Shown: positions 12,273 through 27,604 of the stretch, piece after piece | How positions within the stretch are numbered: the first letter of the stretch is position 1 | How the letters are laid out: the number at the start of each line of letters is the position of its first letter | Assembly: GCA_003247225.1 (NCBI GenBank) | Contig: QKAK01000136.1 | Location: 1 to 45,117 of the forward strand | Reading direction: 5' to 3' | Length of the DNA stretch: 45,117 nucleotides | Origin: Spirochaetota bacterium | Lineage (GTDB): Bacteria; Spirochaetota; Spirochaetia; Treponematales; UBA12059 | Notes under the pieces: model-generated | The model's database searches: none | What the model saw: the letters and a program-made list of their open reading frames with translations, nothing else | Told to the model about the DNA's origin: nothing | Position numbers and translations under genes: made by a program

Positions 12273-12848
12273 TCACGCCAGCGCGTTGACCTTGGCGTAG
12301 GCGGCCAGCGCCTCGTCGAAGCCCCGCTCGGCGCAGAGGTCGAGGGCGGTCGCGGCCCGCGGGAACACCGAGCACTCGAGCTTCTCCCGCTCGTCGCGCG
12401 AGAAGTCGGACAGCACGTAGCCGGCCACGTCGTCGTGGCTCGGCCGGCCTATGCCGAGGCGCAGCCGCATGAAGTCGGCCGTGCCGAGCCGCTCCTTCAT
12501 CGACCTGAGGCCGTTGTGCCCGCCGAGCCCGCCGCCCTTCTTGAAGCCGAAGAACCCGAAGCCGATCTCGAGCTCGTCGTGCGCCACGAGCACCTCGCCG
12601 GGCTCGACCTTGTAGAACCGGGCGATCTCGGCGACGCTGTCGCCGGACAGGTTCATGTACGTCTCCGGGACGATGAACCAGGTCCGCCCGAGCGGCGTCT
12701 CGCGCTGGGCCCAGCGGCCCTTGAAGCCCCGCTTCCATTGGAGCGACGGGTAGAACGGCAGCGACTCGAGGAAGAGCCACGCCACGTTATGCCTATTGCC
12801 GGAGTACTCCCGGCCGTGATTGCCCAGGAAGGCGTACAGCTTGATCAT
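12273..12848 (-). CDS. pth: Peptidyl-tRNA hydrolase
   Basis: Enzyme of 191 residues that frees tRNA from peptidyl-tRNA dropped off the ribosome. Family motifs: FLGNHGREYSGNRHN with the catalytic His, PETYMNLSG, VAHDELEIGFG with the catalytic Asp, and GGGLGGHNGLRSM. The first motif reads GNHG rather than the usual GNPG. The frame stays open far upstream, antisense to the pyrophosphatase gene, so the start is taken at ATG 12848 (MIKLYAFLG), nine bases after a TATGCT box; no Shine-Dalgarno is seen. It converges with era across an 11-base gap. Confidence 0.93.
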   Translation of the reverse strand: MIKLYAFLGNHGREYSGNRHNVAWLFLESLPFYPSLQWKRGFKGRWAQRETPLGRTWFIVPETYMNLSGDSVAEIARFYKVEPGEVLVAHDELEIGFGFFGFKKGGGLGGHNGLRSMKERLGTADFMRLRLGIGRPSHDDVAGYVLSDFSRDEREKLECSVFPRAATALDLCAERGFDEALAAYAKVNALA

Positions 12849-12892
12849 ACGGCCCACAGCATAGCGATTCGGACGCCCTTTGGCCATCCGGT

Positions 12893-12922
12893 TTGACCAT
12901 CCCGCGCCCGCGGCGATACACT
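12893..12922 (+). promoter_or_regulatory. Promoter of ppaC, leaderless type
   Basis: TTGACC (12893-12898), 18 bases, TACACT (12917-12922), then seven bases to ATG 12930. On the other strand a weaker box (TATGCT, nine bases before the pth ATG) lies close by, so 12849-12929 holds two divergent, nearly leaderless promoters. Confidence 0.65.
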
Positions 12923-12929
12923 GTCCGGC

Positions 12930-14585
12930 ATGACCGACACCACCTACGTGATAGGCCACAAGAACCCGGACACCGACTCCGTTGTCTCGGCCGCCGCCTA
13001 CGCCCACCTCAAGCGCGAGCTCGGCTTCGGCGACTGCGTCGCCGCCCGCGCCGGCAAGATGAGCCCCCAGGCCGAGTACGTCTTCGAGCGCTTCGGCGCG
13101 CCGTTCCCGGCCTTCATCCCGGACCTCGTGCCGAAGGTCGAGTACTACATGGGCGGCCCGGCCATCGTCGTCGGCAGCGGCACCCCGCTCTGGGACGCCC
13201 TGGCGACGATGAACCAGTCGGGCCAGAAGGCCCTGCCCATCGTCGACGAGGACGGGCGCTACCGCGCGATGCTCCACTACAGCTCGTTCGCCCAGAACAT
13301 CCTCAAGAAGATAAACCCGCACAAGAAGGCGGTCATCCCGACGAGCGTCGGTCGGCTCGAGGCGACGATCAAGGCCCAGCCCGTCTGCGCCTTCGCCCCG
13401 GACGAGATGTTCAAGGCGCGGGTGCTCGTGGCGGCTCTCGAGACCGACAGCTTCAAGCGCCACCTCGACGCCGAGGCCGTCGACTCGGTCATCGTGATCG
13501 TCGGCGACCGCGCCGACGTCCAGCGCTACTCCATCGAGTCGAAGGTCAGGGCGATGATCGTGACGAACGGCGCCCTCCTGTCGCGCGAGCTCAAGGAGCT
13601 GGCCGAGGCCAACGGCGTCTCGGTGCTCGTCTCCCCGTACGATACCTCGAGCACGAGCCTGCTGGTCATCTACTCGACGCCGGTGGAGACGATGGGCGAC
13701 GATACGATCAAGCCGGTGCGCACCCACGAGACCCTCAAGCGGGCCCGCGAGGCCATCGCCGACAGCCCGAGCCGCTCCGTGCCGGTCCTCGACGACGACG
13801 GCCGGGTCGTCGGCTTGTTCGACGAGGGCGACCTGATCCGCGAGCCGAACGTCAGCCTGATACTCGTCGACCACAACGAGCTCGGCCAGGCGGTCGACGG
13901 CGCCGATAACTACCGCATCCTCGAGGTCATCGACCACCACCGCCTCGGCGCCTTCAGCACCCGCTACCCGATCACCTTCATAAACCGCGTCGTCGGCTCG
14001 ACGAGTACCATCGTCGCGTCGATGTACCGCGACGCCAAGGTGCCGATCCCCAAGCCGATAGCCTCGCTCCTGCTCGCGGGGATCCTGTCCGACACCCTGA
14101 TACTCAAGTCGGCCACCGCGACGGACGCCGACCGCGAGGCCGCCGAGTACCTGTCGAACATCGCCGACCTGGACGTCGAGGCCTTCGGGAGGGACATCAT
14201 GAGCTCCGCGAGCCTCGTGGCCAAGAAGCCGGTCGCCGAGATAGTCAGGCTGGACATGAAGGAATACGGCGCCGCCGACCGCTCGTTCACCGTCAGCCAG
14301 GTCGAGGTCCACTCGCCCGACGAGATACTCGAGCGGGCCGACGAGGTGGCCTCGGAGCTGGCGGCCCTGCGCGCCTCGGGCGACCACTACTTCTCCGCGC
14401 TGATGGTGACCGACATCACCGAGCTGTCCAGCGTGCTGTTCGTCGAGGGCGACAAGGATTTCGTGTCGATGCTGCGCTTCCCGCGGTTGAACGAGACCAC
14501 CTTCGAGCTCAAGGACGTGCTGTCGCGCAAGAAGCAGCTCGTGCCGCTGCTGATCGAGCTGACGGAGAAGGCGCTGGGCGACTAG
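12930..14585 (+). CDS. ppaC: Manganese-dependent (family II) inorganic pyrophosphatase with CBS/DRTGG insert
   Basis: Cytoplasmic DHH-family pyrophosphatase of 551 residues, longer than the usual 310 or so. The N-terminal metal site is GHKNPDTDS. A regulatory insert of about 240 residues follows (about 65-300): CBS half (LWDALATMNQSGQKALPIVDEDG), DRTGG-like middle, second CBS half (AREAIADSPSRSVPVLDDDG). The catalytic domain then resumes with VDHNE, EVIDHHRLG and STSTIVASMY. In family members with this insert, adenine nucleotides bound to the CBS pair tune activity. The ATG start is fixed by the promoter ending seven bases upstream. Confidence 0.93.
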   Translation: MTDTTYVIGHKNPDTDSVVSAAAYAHLKRELGFGDCVAARAGKMSPQAEYVFERFGAPFPAFIPDLVPKVEYYMGGPAIVVGSGTPLWDALATMNQSGQKALPIVDEDGRYRAMLHYSSFAQNILKKINPHKKAVIPTSVGRLEATIKAQPVCAFAPDEMFKARVLVAALETDSFKRHLDAEAVDSVIVIVGDRADVQRYSIESKVRAMIVTNGALLSRELKELAEANGVSVLVSPYDTSSTSLLVIYSTPVETMGDDTIKPVRTHETLKRAREAIADSPSRSVPVLDDDGRVVGLFDEGDLIREPNVSLILVDHNELGQAVDGADNYRILEVIDHHRLGAFSTRYPITFINRVVGSTSTIVASMYRDAKVPIPKPIASLLLAGILSDTLILKSATATDADREAAEYLSNIADLDVEAFGRDIMSSASLVAKKPVAEIVRLDMKEYGAADRSFTVSQVEVHSPDEILERADEVASELAALRASGDHYFSALMVTDITELSSVLFVEGDKDFVSMLRFPRLNETTFELKDVLSRKKQLVPLLIELTEKALGD

Positions 14586-23962: not shown

Positions 23963-26130
23963 GCCGCGCGTTCGATATGAAGGATTTCAAGCTGCTGGCC
24001 GAGACGAGGTTCGAGAAGAGGGAGATACACCGCGGCTACGCGATGCGGACGATGCACGTCGACGTCGGAGCCCGGACGATGCGCGAGAAGCCGGTCTCCG
24101 AGGAGATGAAGGCCAAGTTCACGGGCGGCAAGGGCTTCGGGCTCCGGCTGCTCTGGGACGCGACCGAGCCGACGACCAAGTGGGACGACCCGGAGAACGA
24201 GATCGTCGTCGCGATGGGCCCGGTCTGCGGCAACACCAACTACCCCGGCTCGGGCAAGAGCCTCGTGGTCAGCCTGTCGCCGATGACCGGCGTGCCGATC
24301 GACTCGAACGTCGGCGGCTACTTCGGCCCCTACCTCAAGTTCGGCGGCTGGGACGCCCTCGAGATCCAGGGCAAGGCCGACGCGGAGACGATCGTGTTCA
24401 TCGACAACGTCGAGGGCGCCGTGCGCTTCTACGAGTCGCCGGCCGGGCTCCAGGAGGACACGCACCTCCTGGCCGACGAGCTTACCCGCGCCTTCGCCGG
24501 CGGAGGCGCCTCGGCCGACCCCGCGGAGCTGCAGGCGATATCGGTGATCTCCGCCGGCCGCGGCGCCGACCATTCGCCGATGGGCGTCCTGAACTTCAGC
24601 CTGTACGACCGGCGCCGCGACGGCATCCGCGTCAAGCAGGCCGGCCGCGGCGGCATCGGCACCGTGCTGCGGGACAAGCGGATCCGCGCCGTCGTCGTCC
24701 GCTACAAGGGCGTCGGCCAGAACTCCAACGACGCGGCAGACCCCGCCGCCGTCCAGCGCCTCGGCCTCAAGCTGCACCGCGAGATCGTCCAGAACGACGA
24801 CAAGCAGTGCAAGATGCGCAAGCAGGGCACCGCGCACCTGATGGAGGTGATGAACGACTACGACCTCCTGCCCACGAAGAACCACAAGTACGGCCAGGAC
24901 CCCCGCGGCCCCGAGCTGGCGAGCTGGGTCTGGGAGAAGCTGTTCAGCCAGAACCTGCCCGACGGCTGCTGGTTCGGCTGCACGATGGCCTGCGCCCACG
25001 CGGTCGACCGCTTCGAGCTGCGGACCGGCCCCTACAAGGGCCAGAAGGTCTGCGTCGACGGCCCCGAGTACGAGACCGCGGCCGGCGTCGGCTCGAACCT
25101 GTACGTCTACGAGCCCGAGGGCATCCTCGAGCTGAACTTCTACTGCGACACCTACGGCATCGACACGATCAGCTTCGGCACGATGACCGGCTTCCTGATG
25201 GAGTGCTGGGAGCTCGGAGTCCTGAACGCGGAACGCACCGACGGCATCGACCTGGCCTGGGGCAACTGGAAGGGCGCCGCCCAGGTCCTGCACGACATGG
25301 CCGACGGCAAGCGCTTCGGCGTGCTCGCCGGCAAGGGCGTCAAGTTCCTCGCCCGCTACTTCGCCGAGGAGTACGGCGCCGATCCCCGGCTCATGAAGGA
25401 CATCGCGCTCCACGGCAAGGGCCTCGAGCAGAGCGAGTACATCTCCAAGGAGTCGCTCGCGCAGCAGGGCGGCTACTACCTGACCAACAAGGGCCCGCAG
25501 CACGACGAGGCCTGGCTGATCTTCATGGACATGGTCAACAACAAGCTGCCGACCTTCGAGGCCAAGGCCGAGGCGCTGCACTACTTCCCGATGTTCCGCA
25601 CCTGGTTCGGGCTCCAGGGCCTGTGCAAGCTGCCCTGGAACGACATCGAGCCCGCGGACAACGGCAAGTGGCCCGAGTCGAACAAGGTGCCCGAGCACGT
25701 GCACAACTACATCGCGCTGTATACCGCCGTCACCGGCGAGAAGCTCGACTGGGACGGCCTGATCCGCCAGTCGGAGCGCGTCTACAACTTCCAGCGCGTC
25801 TTCAACATCCGCCAGGGCCACGGCCGCCGCGAGGAGGACTACCCGCCGTACCGCGCGATGGGACCGGTGCTCGAGGACGAGTACCTGGCCCGCGAGGAGC
25901 GCTACGACAAGCAGATGCGCGAGAAGATCGGCGTCGACCCGGCCGGCAAGACGACCGCGGAGAAGCTGCGCATCACGCGCGAGTACCGCCAGAGGCAGTA
26001 CGACTCGCTGATAGACGCGGTCTTCAAGCGCCGCGGCTGGACCCCCCAGGGCACCCCGACGCCCGAGCACCTCGCGGAGCTCGGCATGGACCTGCCCGAG
26101 GTCCTCGAAGTGGTCAAGAAGCGCCTGTAA
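23959..26130 (+). CDS. Tungsten-type aldehyde:ferredoxin oxidoreductase family protein
   Basis: Enzyme of 723 residues, longer than archaeal AOR (about 600) and similar to the YdhV/AorB branch. The N-terminal domain has FTGGKGFGLRLLW and AMGPVCGNTNYPGSGK typical of the pterin-binding sheet. The [4Fe-4S] ligands are C337, C341 and C345 (GCWFGCTMAC) and probably C556 (GLCKLPWND). It should hold a bis-pyranopterin tungsten (or molybdenum) site and oxidise an aldehyde, or run in reverse on an acid; the substrate is unknown. The ATG overlaps the ferredoxin stop by four bases. The C-terminal part (about 620-723) is charged and helical. No FAD subunit (AorC) follows. Confidence 0.92.
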   Translation: MSRAFDMKDFKLLAETRFEKREIHRGYAMRTMHVDVGARTMREKPVSEEMKAKFTGGKGFGLRLLWDATEPTTKWDDPENEIVVAMGPVCGNTNYPGSGKSLVVSLSPMTGVPIDSNVGGYFGPYLKFGGWDALEIQGKADAETIVFIDNVEGAVRFYESPAGLQEDTHLLADELTRAFAGGGASADPAELQAISVISAGRGADHSPMGVLNFSLYDRRRDGIRVKQAGRGGIGTVLRDKRIRAVVVRYKGVGQNSNDAADPAAVQRLGLKLHREIVQNDDKQCKMRKQGTAHLMEVMNDYDLLPTKNHKYGQDPRGPELASWVWEKLFSQNLPDGCWFGCTMACAHAVDRFELRTGPYKGQKVCVDGPEYETAAGVGSNLYVYEPEGILELNFYCDTYGIDTISFGTMTGFLMECWELGVLNAERTDGIDLAWGNWKGAAQVLHDMADGKRFGVLAGKGVKFLARYFAEEYGADPRLMKDIALHGKGLEQSEYISKESLAQQGGYYLTNKGPQHDEAWLIFMDMVNNKLPTFEAKAEALHYFPMFRTWFGLQGLCKLPWNDIEPADNGKWPESNKVPEHVHNYIALYTAVTGEKLDWDGLIRQSERVYNFQRVFNIRQGHGRREEDYPPYRAMGPVLEDEYLAREERYDKQMREKIGVDPAGKTTAEKLRITREYRQRQYDSLIDAVFKRRGWTPQGTPTPEHLAELGMDLPEVLEVVKKRL

Positions 26131-26140
26131 GAATAAAAGG

Positions 26141-26176
26141 GAGCCCCGCGCATCCGAATATGGATGTGCGGGGCTC
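26141..26176 (-). terminator. Terminator of the antitoxin transcript
   Basis: A 15-base stem, GAGCCCCGC...GCGGGGCTC with one G-T pair and a six-base loop. On the reverse strand it is followed by CCCTTTTATTC, an intrinsic terminator for the leftward toxin-antitoxin mRNA. On the forward strand no T run follows, so it is at best a weak end for the AOR transcript. Confidence 0.65.
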
Positions 26177-26206
26177 GCCAATCCGTAGCCTTAGCCGTCG
26201 CTTCCG

Positions 26207-26506
26207 CTATGCCCGCGATAGGACCTTTCGCACTTCGTTCACGTCGACGAGATTCCCCGACACGTACTTATGTATTATCGATCCGAGAAGAGTCTGATAC
26301 GGCATTCCCTCGCGGGCGGCGAGACGTTTCAGCGCCGCGATGTCAGATGAATCTATCCGAATGGAGAGCGGTCGCCGACCGGTCTTCGCGGCGGAGATCA
26401 AGGAAGCGCGTTCCGCTTCAGGAGCGGGAACGAACTCGTTGAAAGCGTCCTCGTACTCCTGCTCCTCGACATCGAGCTCGATGCCGTCGGGGTATGCATT
26501 ATTCAT
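26207..26506 (-). CDS. CopG/BrnA-like ribbon-helix-helix antitoxin
   Basis: Protein of 99 residues. The N-terminal part is acidic (DVEEQEYEDAFNEF) and would wrap the toxin. The C-terminal part (about 44-85) is a ribbon-helix-helix DNA-binding domain: strand RPLSIRIDS, helix DIAALKRLAAREG, then MPYQTLLGSIIHKYVSG, typical of CopG-family antitoxins. In such pairs the antitoxin neutralises the toxin and represses its own promoter. The start ATG overlaps the stop of the upstream toxin frame as ATGA, so it depends on translation reaching or restarting there. The upstream toxin frame is interrupted, which makes this a possible orphan antitoxin. Confidence 0.85.
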   Translation of the reverse strand: MNNAYPDGIELDVEEQEYEDAFNEFVPAPEAERASLISAAKTGRRPLSIRIDSSDIAALKRLAAREGMPYQTLLGSIIHKYVSGNLVDVNEVRKVLSRA

Positions 26507-26760
26507 ATCGTACCTGCCTTTTTAGCCTTACGGCTCGGTATTATCGTCTTAAGAAACCAATCGCCCCGTTCATCGATCACGAGCGGAACGATGTGCGGGT
26601 AGTCATGAATCCTTACGATCACGCGTTTTTGTCAGGGCCGGGACGGATTGTCCTCCGGACCCACGAATCGTCCTGACGCGAGCTCAGCTACTACATCCTC
26701 GAAACAGACTCCTCGTGTGGATTTCAGATATTCATTTTTCTCATCACTCCAATTGATCAT
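26503..26760 (-). pseudogene. BrnT/RelE-like toxin gene interrupted by in-frame TGA
   Basis: Reading left from ATG 26760 gives 42 codons (MINWSDEKNEYLKS ... EDNPSRP), then TGA at 26634-26632. The same frame then runs on for 42 codons (QKRVIVRIHDYPHIVPLVI ... WFLKTIIPSRKAKKAGTI) to a stop overlapping the antitoxin start. Both halves together match the length and pattern of toxins paired with CopG antitoxins, including the typical FLKTIIPSRK end. The family commonly has Gly-Gln at the break (PGQK), so a single GGA to TGA change would explain the stop. The remaining frame is otherwise intact, which suggests a recent loss. Re-initiation at a GTG just after the break is possible. Confidence 0.75.
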
Positions 26761-26766
26761 ATATGA

Positions 26767-26795
26767 AACGTAGCTCTCTATATATACATTGTCAA
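26767..26795 (-). promoter_or_regulatory. Promoter of the toxin-antitoxin operon, leaderless type
   Basis: Reverse strand: a consensus TTGACA (26795-26790), 17 bases, TACGTT (26772-26767), then six bases to ATG 26760. The spacer contains TATATATA, a candidate site for antitoxin binding. The patch is AT-rich compared with its surroundings. Confidence 0.6.
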
Positions 26796-26841
26796 TATTA
26801 TCGCACTCTTACGCTGAAATATACTTATAATCGACCATAAA

Positions 26842-26869
26842 AAGGGGCGCCCCGGCCGGGGCGCCCTTT
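26842..26869 (-). terminator. Terminator of the peroxiredoxin gene
   Basis: GGGCGCCCCGG/CCGGGGCGCCC is a perfect 11-base inverted repeat (26845-26866), followed on the reverse strand by CTTTTTAT. It lies just after the peroxiredoxin stop and upstream of the toxin-antitoxin promoter. Confidence 0.75.
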
Positions 26870-26890
26870 CGCTACTCGTCGCCTATCGGA

Positions 26891-27604
26891 TTACTTCTTG
26901 ATTGCCTGCAGTACCTTCTCCTTGTCTATCTTCTTGGTGCAGAAGAACCAGTCGTGGCAGGTCACGCCCTGCTCCTTGCCGTCCATGCGGTCCTTCGCGA
27001 CGCCGCAGGAGCCGGCGGTCGGCACGATCACGTCGTCGCCGGGGCGCCAGTCGGCCGGGGTGGCGACGCCGAACTCGTCGGCGGCCTTCAGGGCCTGCAC
27101 GACGCGGATCAGCTCGTCGAAGTTGCGTCCCATCGACAGCGGGTAGTAGATCATCGCGCGGATGACGCCCTTGGGGTCGATCACGAACACCGCGCGCACG
27201 GCCTTGGTGCTCGACTCGCCGGGCTGGATCATGCCGTATTTCTTGGCCACCTCCATCGTGATGTCCTCGATCAGCGGGAACTTGACCTCGACGTCCTTCA
27301 TGCCCTTGTACTCGATCTTCTCCTTGATGGTCCTGAGCCACGCGATATGGCTGTAGAGCCCGTCGACCGACAGGCCGACGAGCTTGCAGTTGAGCTCCTC
27401 GAACTGCTTCTCCATGGTCGCGAAGGTCATGAACTCGGAGGTGCAGACCGGGGTGAAGTCGGCGGGATGGCTGAACAGGATGACCCAGTGGCCCTGGTAC
27501 TGCTTCGGGAAGTCTATCTCGCCCTGGGTGGTCACGGCCTTGAAGGCGGGGGCCTTGTCGCCTATCCTCGGCATGGCGATGGCGGCGGCTTCGTTGTTGT
27601 CCAT
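26891..27604 (-). CDS. Peroxiredoxin, Prx6-type with C-terminal CxxWFFC motif
   Basis: Thiol peroxidase of 237 residues, cytoplasmic, reducing hydrogen peroxide and organic peroxides. The peroxidatic Cys is in PADFTPVCTSEF. The extended C-terminal domain has GSCGVAKDRM and CHDWFFCTKK, as in the archaeal-type Prx6 group where C-terminal cysteines resolve the sulfenate. Start ATG 27604 follows AAGGAG; the frame is open for 45 more codons upstream but these are AT-rich promoter sequence. It is monocistronic, with its own terminator. Such an enzyme fits an anaerobe that carries oxygen-sensitive iron-sulfur and tungsten enzymes. Confidence 0.94.
   Translation of the reverse strand: MDNNEAAAIAMPRIGDKAPAFKAVTTQGEIDFPKQYQGHWVILFSHPADFTPVCTSEFMTFATMEKQFEELNCKLVGLSVDGLYSHIAWLRTIKEKIEYKGMKDVEVKFPLIEDITMEVAKKYGMIQPGESSTKAVRAVFVIDPKGVIRAMIYYPLSMGRNFDELIRVVQALKAADEFGVATPADWRPGDDVIVPTAGSCGVAKDRMDGKEQGVTCHDWFFCTKKIDKEKVLQAIKK

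What the first reader, a model, noticed from the sequence alone, without database searches (positions are those of the whole stretch)
26503..26760. Toxin of a CopG/BrnT-like pair inactivated by a single in-frame TGA
The toxin frame is complete from ATG 26760 to an ATGA overlap with the antitoxin, except for TGA at codon 43 (26634-26632). Relatives commonly have Gly-Gln there, so GGA to TGA is the simplest change. The antitoxin, promoter and terminator look intact. This points to a recent toxin loss with an orphan antitoxin, or, less likely, to read-through or restart.
Basis: partly seen in the sequence, partly recalled or inferred. Interest (0 to 1): 0.65.

Follow-up and report, generated by a model that had tools for sequence, protein, structure and literature searches.

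The report
Toxin gene broken, antitoxin kept
In this spirochaete genome a bacterial self-poisoning gene has been cut short by a single stop codon while its antidote gene stays intact; related genomes show the same "toxin dies first" pattern repeatedly, so the broken gene is ordinary, but the toxin gene's unusual start signal, shared across many phyla, is a side observation worth testing.

Summary
A BrnT-like toxin frame (26760-26503, minus) carries TGA at codon 43, followed by a 99-aa CopG/RHH antitoxin frame at an ATGA overlap. The conceptual toxin folds confidently and its best PDB match is Brucella BrnT, but it falls below Pfam's BrnT cut-off. Position 43 is never Cys in 88 relatives, and 87 of them have no in-frame stop. 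TGA is an ordinary stop here and no hairpin follows it, so selenocysteine or recoding is very unlikely. No second lesion and no clear relaxation of constraint is seen after the stop, which fits a recent loss. Of 38 antitoxin loci in the order, 22 pairs are intact, 1 is fused, 11 have a broken or missing toxin beside an intact antitoxin, 4 have both damaged, and none shows the reverse. Toxin-first loss of brnTA is published (Pseudomonas, 23% of loci, PMC7280312), so this is a new case of a known kind. Unexpectedly, the family's promoter sits so that transcription should begin at the toxin start codon (leaderless), while the antitoxin has a Shine-Dalgarno site; the pattern recurs in most phyla sampled.

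The parts
26503..26760 (-). BrnT-like toxin frame with one internal stop (pseudogene); 42 codons before TGA, 42 sense codons after
   Evidence: relatives; fold
26632..26634 (-). in-frame TGA at codon 43, in the loop between predicted strands 32-37 and 45-51
26207..26506 (-). intact 99-aa CopG/RHH (BrnA-like) antitoxin, ATGA overlap with the toxin frame
   Evidence: (PF12441 21.2 bits, PF14384 19.3 bits, RHH_1 17.7 bits at residues 47-68, all below cut-off)
26513..26518 (-). weak Shine-Dalgarno-like GGCAGG before the antitoxin start
   Evidence: sequence; relatives' antitoxins have SD sites in 104 of 115
26790..26795 (-). -35 element TTGACA
   Evidence: family column conservation
26767..26772 (-). 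-10 element TACGTT (3 of 6), ending 6 nt before the toxin ATG, so the predicted transcript is leaderless
26139..26179 (-). terminator hairpin after the antitoxin, T-rich tail on the minus strand (between antitoxin and the AFOR gene end)
   Evidence: -33.6 kcal/mol, z -6.7

Best explanation
This is a probably horizontally acquired, toxin-first type II toxin-antitoxin operon of the BrnT/CopG kind, in which the toxin gene was recently inactivated by one nonsense substitution at codon 43. Shown: the frame, the stop, intact relatives, the intact antitoxin, the absence of further decay, and repeated toxin-only lesions in other species. Inferred: the 42-residue product is inactive, because it lacks three core beta strands and 7 of the 11 invariant residues (Y54, P59, L70, K71, T72, R77, K78). 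Also inferred: the antitoxin is still made, because it has its own start site and the transcript is not interrupted. Such an antitoxin no longer has a cognate toxin to hold; it is either decaying neutrally or kept as a self-repressor or as protection against related toxins.
For: One stop in an otherwise complete homologous frame. Relatives read a sense codon there, and 87 of 88 database relatives have no in-frame stop. pN/pS after the stop is 0.23-0.26 against the two closest intact relatives, close to the 0.27-0.32 before it. All invariant residues are still encoded on both sides. TGA closes about 10 of 31 likely genes in the window, including two with Pfam domains ending before it. In the order, 11 antitoxin loci have a broken or missing toxin with intact antitoxin against 0 of the reverse (8 against 0 counting only recognisable toxin remnants; sign test p 0.001 and 0.008); the lesions differ (nonsense, frameshift, in-frame deletions, truncations), so they look independent. 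In the congeners G006 and G007, where both flanking genes lie on one contig, the gap holds other genes and no TA pair was seen there, and the pair's third-position GC is 0.50-0.67 against mostly 0.8-0.95 around it, as for a foreign insertion.
Against: No reads were available, so a sequencing or assembly error at codon 43 is not excluded, and only one genome per species is held. UGA is the leakiest stop: mean read-through of TGA reporters in E. coli was 0.2-7% depending on temperature (PMC11126739), so a trickle of full-length toxin is possible. The low pN/pS after the stop would also fit continued use by read-through; pN/pS between the two intact relatives is lower still (0.16-0.18), on few sites.
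Confidence: 0.85

Rival explanations
1. The TGA is a sequencing, assembly or strain-mixture error and the toxin is intact in the organism.
For: The genome is a draft in 224 contigs, and everything else in the frame is intact.
Against: It is a substitution rather than a homopolymer indel, and other kinds of toxin-only lesion recur in other genomes.
Confidence: 0.08
2. Low-level UGA read-through still supplies a small dose of full-length toxin, so the gene is attenuated, not dead.
For: No clear decay after the stop; UGA is the most read-through-prone stop in E. coli (PMC11126739).
Against: No relative has the same stop; the sequence after the stop is unusually unstructured, so no stimulatory hairpin is seen (z +2.5).
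Confidence: 0.05
3. The UGA encodes selenocysteine.
For: The genome has a tRNA-Sec gene.
Against: No relative has Cys at this position, and there is no hairpin after the UGA.
Confidence: 0.01
4. TGA is reassigned to an amino acid in this organism.
For: None beyond the frame being otherwise open.
Against: TGA ends about a third of likely genes in the window, including a peptidyl-tRNA hydrolase-domain and an SbcC-like frame.
Confidence: 0.005
5. Translation restarts after the stop (for example at the GTG of codon 47) and the two halves reassociate.
For: An in-frame GTG lies four codons on.
Against: No Shine-Dalgarno site is evident before it, and neither half keeps the whole fold.
Confidence: 0.02

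Closest known systems
BrnT/BrnA type II toxin-antitoxin system (Brucella abortus; PF04365 / PF14384; PDB 3u97)
   Same: Toxin gene first, RHH antitoxin second; predicted fold matches 3u97 best in the PDB (TM 0.64/0.69).
   Different: Conceptual toxin scores 17 bits against a 34.5-bit Pfam cut-off and has 13% identity to 3u97; a distinct W-x-x-x-K ... FLKTxxPSRK group. This copy is interrupted.
brnTA loci with lost or disrupted toxin in Pseudomonas (Rosendahl et al. 2020, PMC7280312)
   Same: 23% of brnTA homologous loci lack an intact toxin frame, the same tendency as 29% here (11 of 38).
   Different: Other phylum and other toxin group; here each lesion was looked at in the sequence and the reverse case was searched for.
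Decaying chromosomal TA systems (for example ccdO157 in E. coli, cited in PMC7167474)
   Same: Nonsense mutations and deletions accumulate in a chromosomal TA locus.
   Different: Different toxin family.
Leaderless TA transcripts of Mycobacterium tuberculosis (Cortes et al. 2013, PMC3898074)
   Different: There a quarter of all genes are leaderless; here the geometry is predicted, not measured, for one toxin family across phyla, and the leaderless gene is the toxin.

Membership tests
BrnT toxin (PF04365) | Score above the curated Pfam cut-off | tested here: not met
   17 bits against 34.5; 6 of 12 relatives match weakly
BrnT toxin (PF04365) | BrnT (BECR/RelE-like) fold | tested here: met
   Model pLDDT 94.6; 3u97 BrnT is the top PDB match, probability 1.00, TM 0.64/0.69, though Foldseek E is only 0.013
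BrnT toxin (PF04365) | Ribonuclease that inhibits protein synthesis | not testable with these tools
   Known for Brucella BrnT (PMC5086665); no assay here
brnTA operon | Toxin gene first, RHH antitoxin second, adjacent or overlapping | tested here: met
   ATGA overlap, RHH_1 match 17.7 bits, just below its 20.5 cut-off, same order in relatives
CopG_antitoxin / BrnA_antitoxin (PF12441, PF14384) | Score above the Pfam cut-off | tested here: not met
   21.2 against 28 and 19.3 against 26.1 bits
Pseudogene | Disrupted frame with intact homologues | tested here: met
Pseudogene | Relaxed selection after the lesion | tested here: inconclusive
   pN/pS not clearly raised; fits a recent event but does not prove loss of function
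Selenoprotein | Cys in homologues at the UGA and a hairpin after it | tested here: not met

The most novel reading that the evidence does not exclude
BrnT-family toxin genes are leaderless by design. Across most phyla sampled the promoter is placed so that transcription starts on the toxin's start codon, while the antitoxin in the same mRNA has a Shine-Dalgarno site. The two proteins would then be made by different initiation modes, so conditions that favour leaderless translation would tilt the ratio towards toxin, and a toxin nonsense mutation such as this one would leave antitoxin synthesis largely untouched. The placement is shown statistically; the transcription start and the switch are inferred.
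Probability: 0.65. Interest if true: 0.6.

Novelty: new member of a known kind. Interest (0 to 1): 0.38.

Why it matters
The locus itself is a clean early snapshot of how an addiction module dies: toxin first, antitoxin left behind. Counting it across the order gives 11 against 0, in line with published brnTA decay in Pseudomonas. The side result matters more if confirmed: a toxin family whose first gene is leaderless in many phyla would link toxin dosage to the translation-initiation state of the cell, and it can be tested by mapping a few 5' ends.

Tried and rejected
Selenocysteine (tRNA-Sec exists, but no Cys in relatives and no hairpin). TGA reassignment (TGA closes about 10 of 31 likely genes). 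Relatives with the same TGA: none found; G179/L036 has a TAG at the invariant Tyr54 and G217 an apparent frameshift near codon 8. A genome-contig scan with the window protein alone found no relative; an alignment was needed. The family has no solved structure by sequence (best E 0.36); the fold search was needed. A plasmid search gave only relatives below 60% identity, 35 of 39 records in Piscirickettsia, and a viral scan 8 loci, so no recent mobile donor was identified. Literature searches for leaderless BrnT found no report, but many subscription papers, including the original BrnT paper, are not held.

Full report
What is there. On the minus strand, 26760-26503 encodes MINWSDEKNEYLKSTRGVCFEDVVAELASGRFVGPEDNPSRP*QKRVIVRIHDYPHIVPLVIDERGDWFLKTIIPSRKAKKAGTI, with TGA at 26634-26632, followed through an ATGA overlap by a 99-aa frame, 26506-26207. 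The pair lies between an aldehyde ferredoxin oxidoreductase (AFOR) gene ending at 26130 and a peroxiredoxin gene on the minus strand whose stop is at 26891. The window is contig 31 of a 3.38 Mb draft genome; the closest named relatives of the toxin are from spirochaete MAGs.

What the toxin is. By sequence it is only a marginal BrnT (17 bits, E 0.0076, cut-off 34.5). Its relatives form a coherent group with invariant W4, K8, F20, P39, Y54, P59, L70, K71, T72, R77 and K78. Read through the stop for folding, aligned with 23 relatives, AlphaFold2 gives a confident model (pLDDT 94.6, pTM 0.83), and Brucella BrnT 3u97 is the top PDB match (TM 0.64/0.69, Foldseek E 0.013). I therefore call it BrnT-like: it has the fold and the operon plan, but not the Pfam score. 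The antitoxin has weak CopG/BrnA and RHH matches.

Is the stop a lesion? In 88 relatives from genome and viral collections the aligned residue is Gly 37, Asn 25, Arg 10, His 6, Asp 4, Lys 4, Glu 1, Ser 1, and the next residue is Gln in all; 87 of the 88 have no in-frame stop (three further loci were flagged there only because of a second, unrelated weak match). The two closest relatives (69% identity) have Gly codons. A tRNA-Sec gene exists, but the absence of Cys and an unusually unstructured stretch after the UGA (z +2.5) speak against selenocysteine. TGA ends about 10 of 31 likely genes in the window, two of them with Pfam domains that finish before it, so it is not reassigned.

How old is it? 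Nei-Gojobori pN/pS against the two closest intact relatives is 0.27 and 0.32 before and 0.26 and 0.23 after the stop, against 0.18 and 0.16 between those relatives. All invariant residues are retained and there is no indel or second stop. The sample is small, but it fits a recent event. Third-position GC of 0.50-0.55 (toxin) and 0.67 (antitoxin) against mostly 0.8-0.95 in neighbouring genes suggests a foreign origin. In G006 and G007, where both flanking genes lie on one contig of a congener, the gap between them (about 2.1 and 4.4 kb) holds other frames instead, and the toxin search found no copy in G006 or G007 at all.

Is toxin-first loss a pattern? The antitoxin was used as the query over 394 genomes of the order, so sampling did not depend on toxin state. 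Of 38 antitoxin places, 22 have both genes intact; 1 (G096) has toxin and antitoxin in one continuous frame; 11 have an intact antitoxin with a broken or missing toxin (G000, G002, G217, G105, G051, G019, G127, two in G006, G054, one in G278); 4 have both damaged (G263, G131, G270, G320); none has an intact toxin with a broken antitoxin (the classification is my reading). Counting only recognisable toxin remnants it is 8 against 0. Sign tests give 0.001 and 0.008; they assume independence, which the different lesions support but do not prove. Caveats: G051 lies at a contig edge, 'missing' toxins may have been too diverged to see, and an antitoxin query could miss badly damaged antitoxins; in the toxin-seeded collections 86 of 88 loci have the antitoxin downstream. 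Outside this set, G179/L036 has a TAG at Tyr54 and G024 two stops near the start, both with the antitoxin frame present. The same tendency is published for brnTA in Pseudomonas: 23% of loci lack an intact toxin frame (PMC7280312), and decay of chromosomal TA systems by nonsense mutation and deletion is reviewed in PMC7167474.

An unexpected feature of the family. Aligning 119 distinct toxin start sites on the start codon, with the start taken as the one nearest upstream of the conserved W4 and not from the promoter, gives TTGACA at -35 to -30 and a TAtaaT-like box at -12 to -7, with a pyrimidine at -1 in 74%, and no Shine-Dalgarno enrichment (26 of 119, shuffles 29.8). A promoter of at least 9/12 is found in 90 of 119 (shuffles 10.7), and in 75 its -10 ends 4-8 nt before the start (shuffles 1.1), in 56 exactly 6 nt. 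The antitoxins of the same operons show the opposite: Shine-Dalgarno matches of 4 nt or more in 104 of 115 (shuffles 34.8) and promoter matches at background (6, shuffles 7.8). Classical BrnT loci above the Pfam cut-off behave like the toxins (13 of 18). The pattern is seen in spirochaetes, proteobacteria, desulfobacteria, Chloroflexota and many candidate phyla, not in the 4 cyanobacterial loci. In 79 of 119 loci no other start lies between the chosen one and the upstream in-frame stop. The simplest reading is a leaderless toxin message and a conventionally initiated antitoxin. The window has the same geometry with a weaker -10, TACGTT, and a weaker antitoxin Shine-Dalgarno site. Leaderless TA messages are known in M. 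tuberculosis (PMC3898074) and were suggested for three loci in Synechocystis (PMC4963859); I found no report for BrnT in the held library. No 5' end has been measured here, so this is a prediction.

Verdict. It is a new example of a known process. The leaderless prediction is the part with most promise and is easy to test.

Noticed in passing
26760-26795 and 119 related loci: Promoter of the BrnT-like toxin family is placed so that transcription should start on the toxin start codon (leaderless), with Shine-Dalgarno sites on the antitoxins; seen in most phyla sampled.
   Followed up: partly
related loci, -27 to -18 from the toxin start: A conserved spacer motif close to AGGCACACAT lies between the -35 and -10 boxes in many relatives, perhaps the antitoxin's operator; the window's spacer differs.
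   Followed up: no
26131-26890; L182-L186: The gap between the AFOR and peroxiredoxin genes varies in the genus: about 2.1 kb in G006 and 4.4 kb in G007 with other genes, the TA pair here. Possible insertion hotspot.
   Followed up: partly
L140 (G096): Toxin and antitoxin lie in one continuous frame, a likely toxin-antitoxin fusion with an altered toxin C-terminus; BrnT-BrnA fusions are reported in PMC11980606.
   Followed up: no
L133 (G002) and L142 (G105): In-frame internal deletions of roughly 30 residues remove the toxin core while the antitoxin stays intact.
   Followed up: partly
L121 (G000 contig 119, 10814-10901): A tRNA-Sec gene, so this organism probably makes selenoproteins.
   Followed up: no
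12273-14387: A 704-codon frame carries a peptidyl-tRNA hydrolase domain only at residues 519-696; the long N-terminal part has no Pfam match and may be an over-long frame.
   Followed up: no
L162-L169: Eight viral-collection contigs carry relatives of the toxin, one 56% identical to the query of that search.
   Followed up: no
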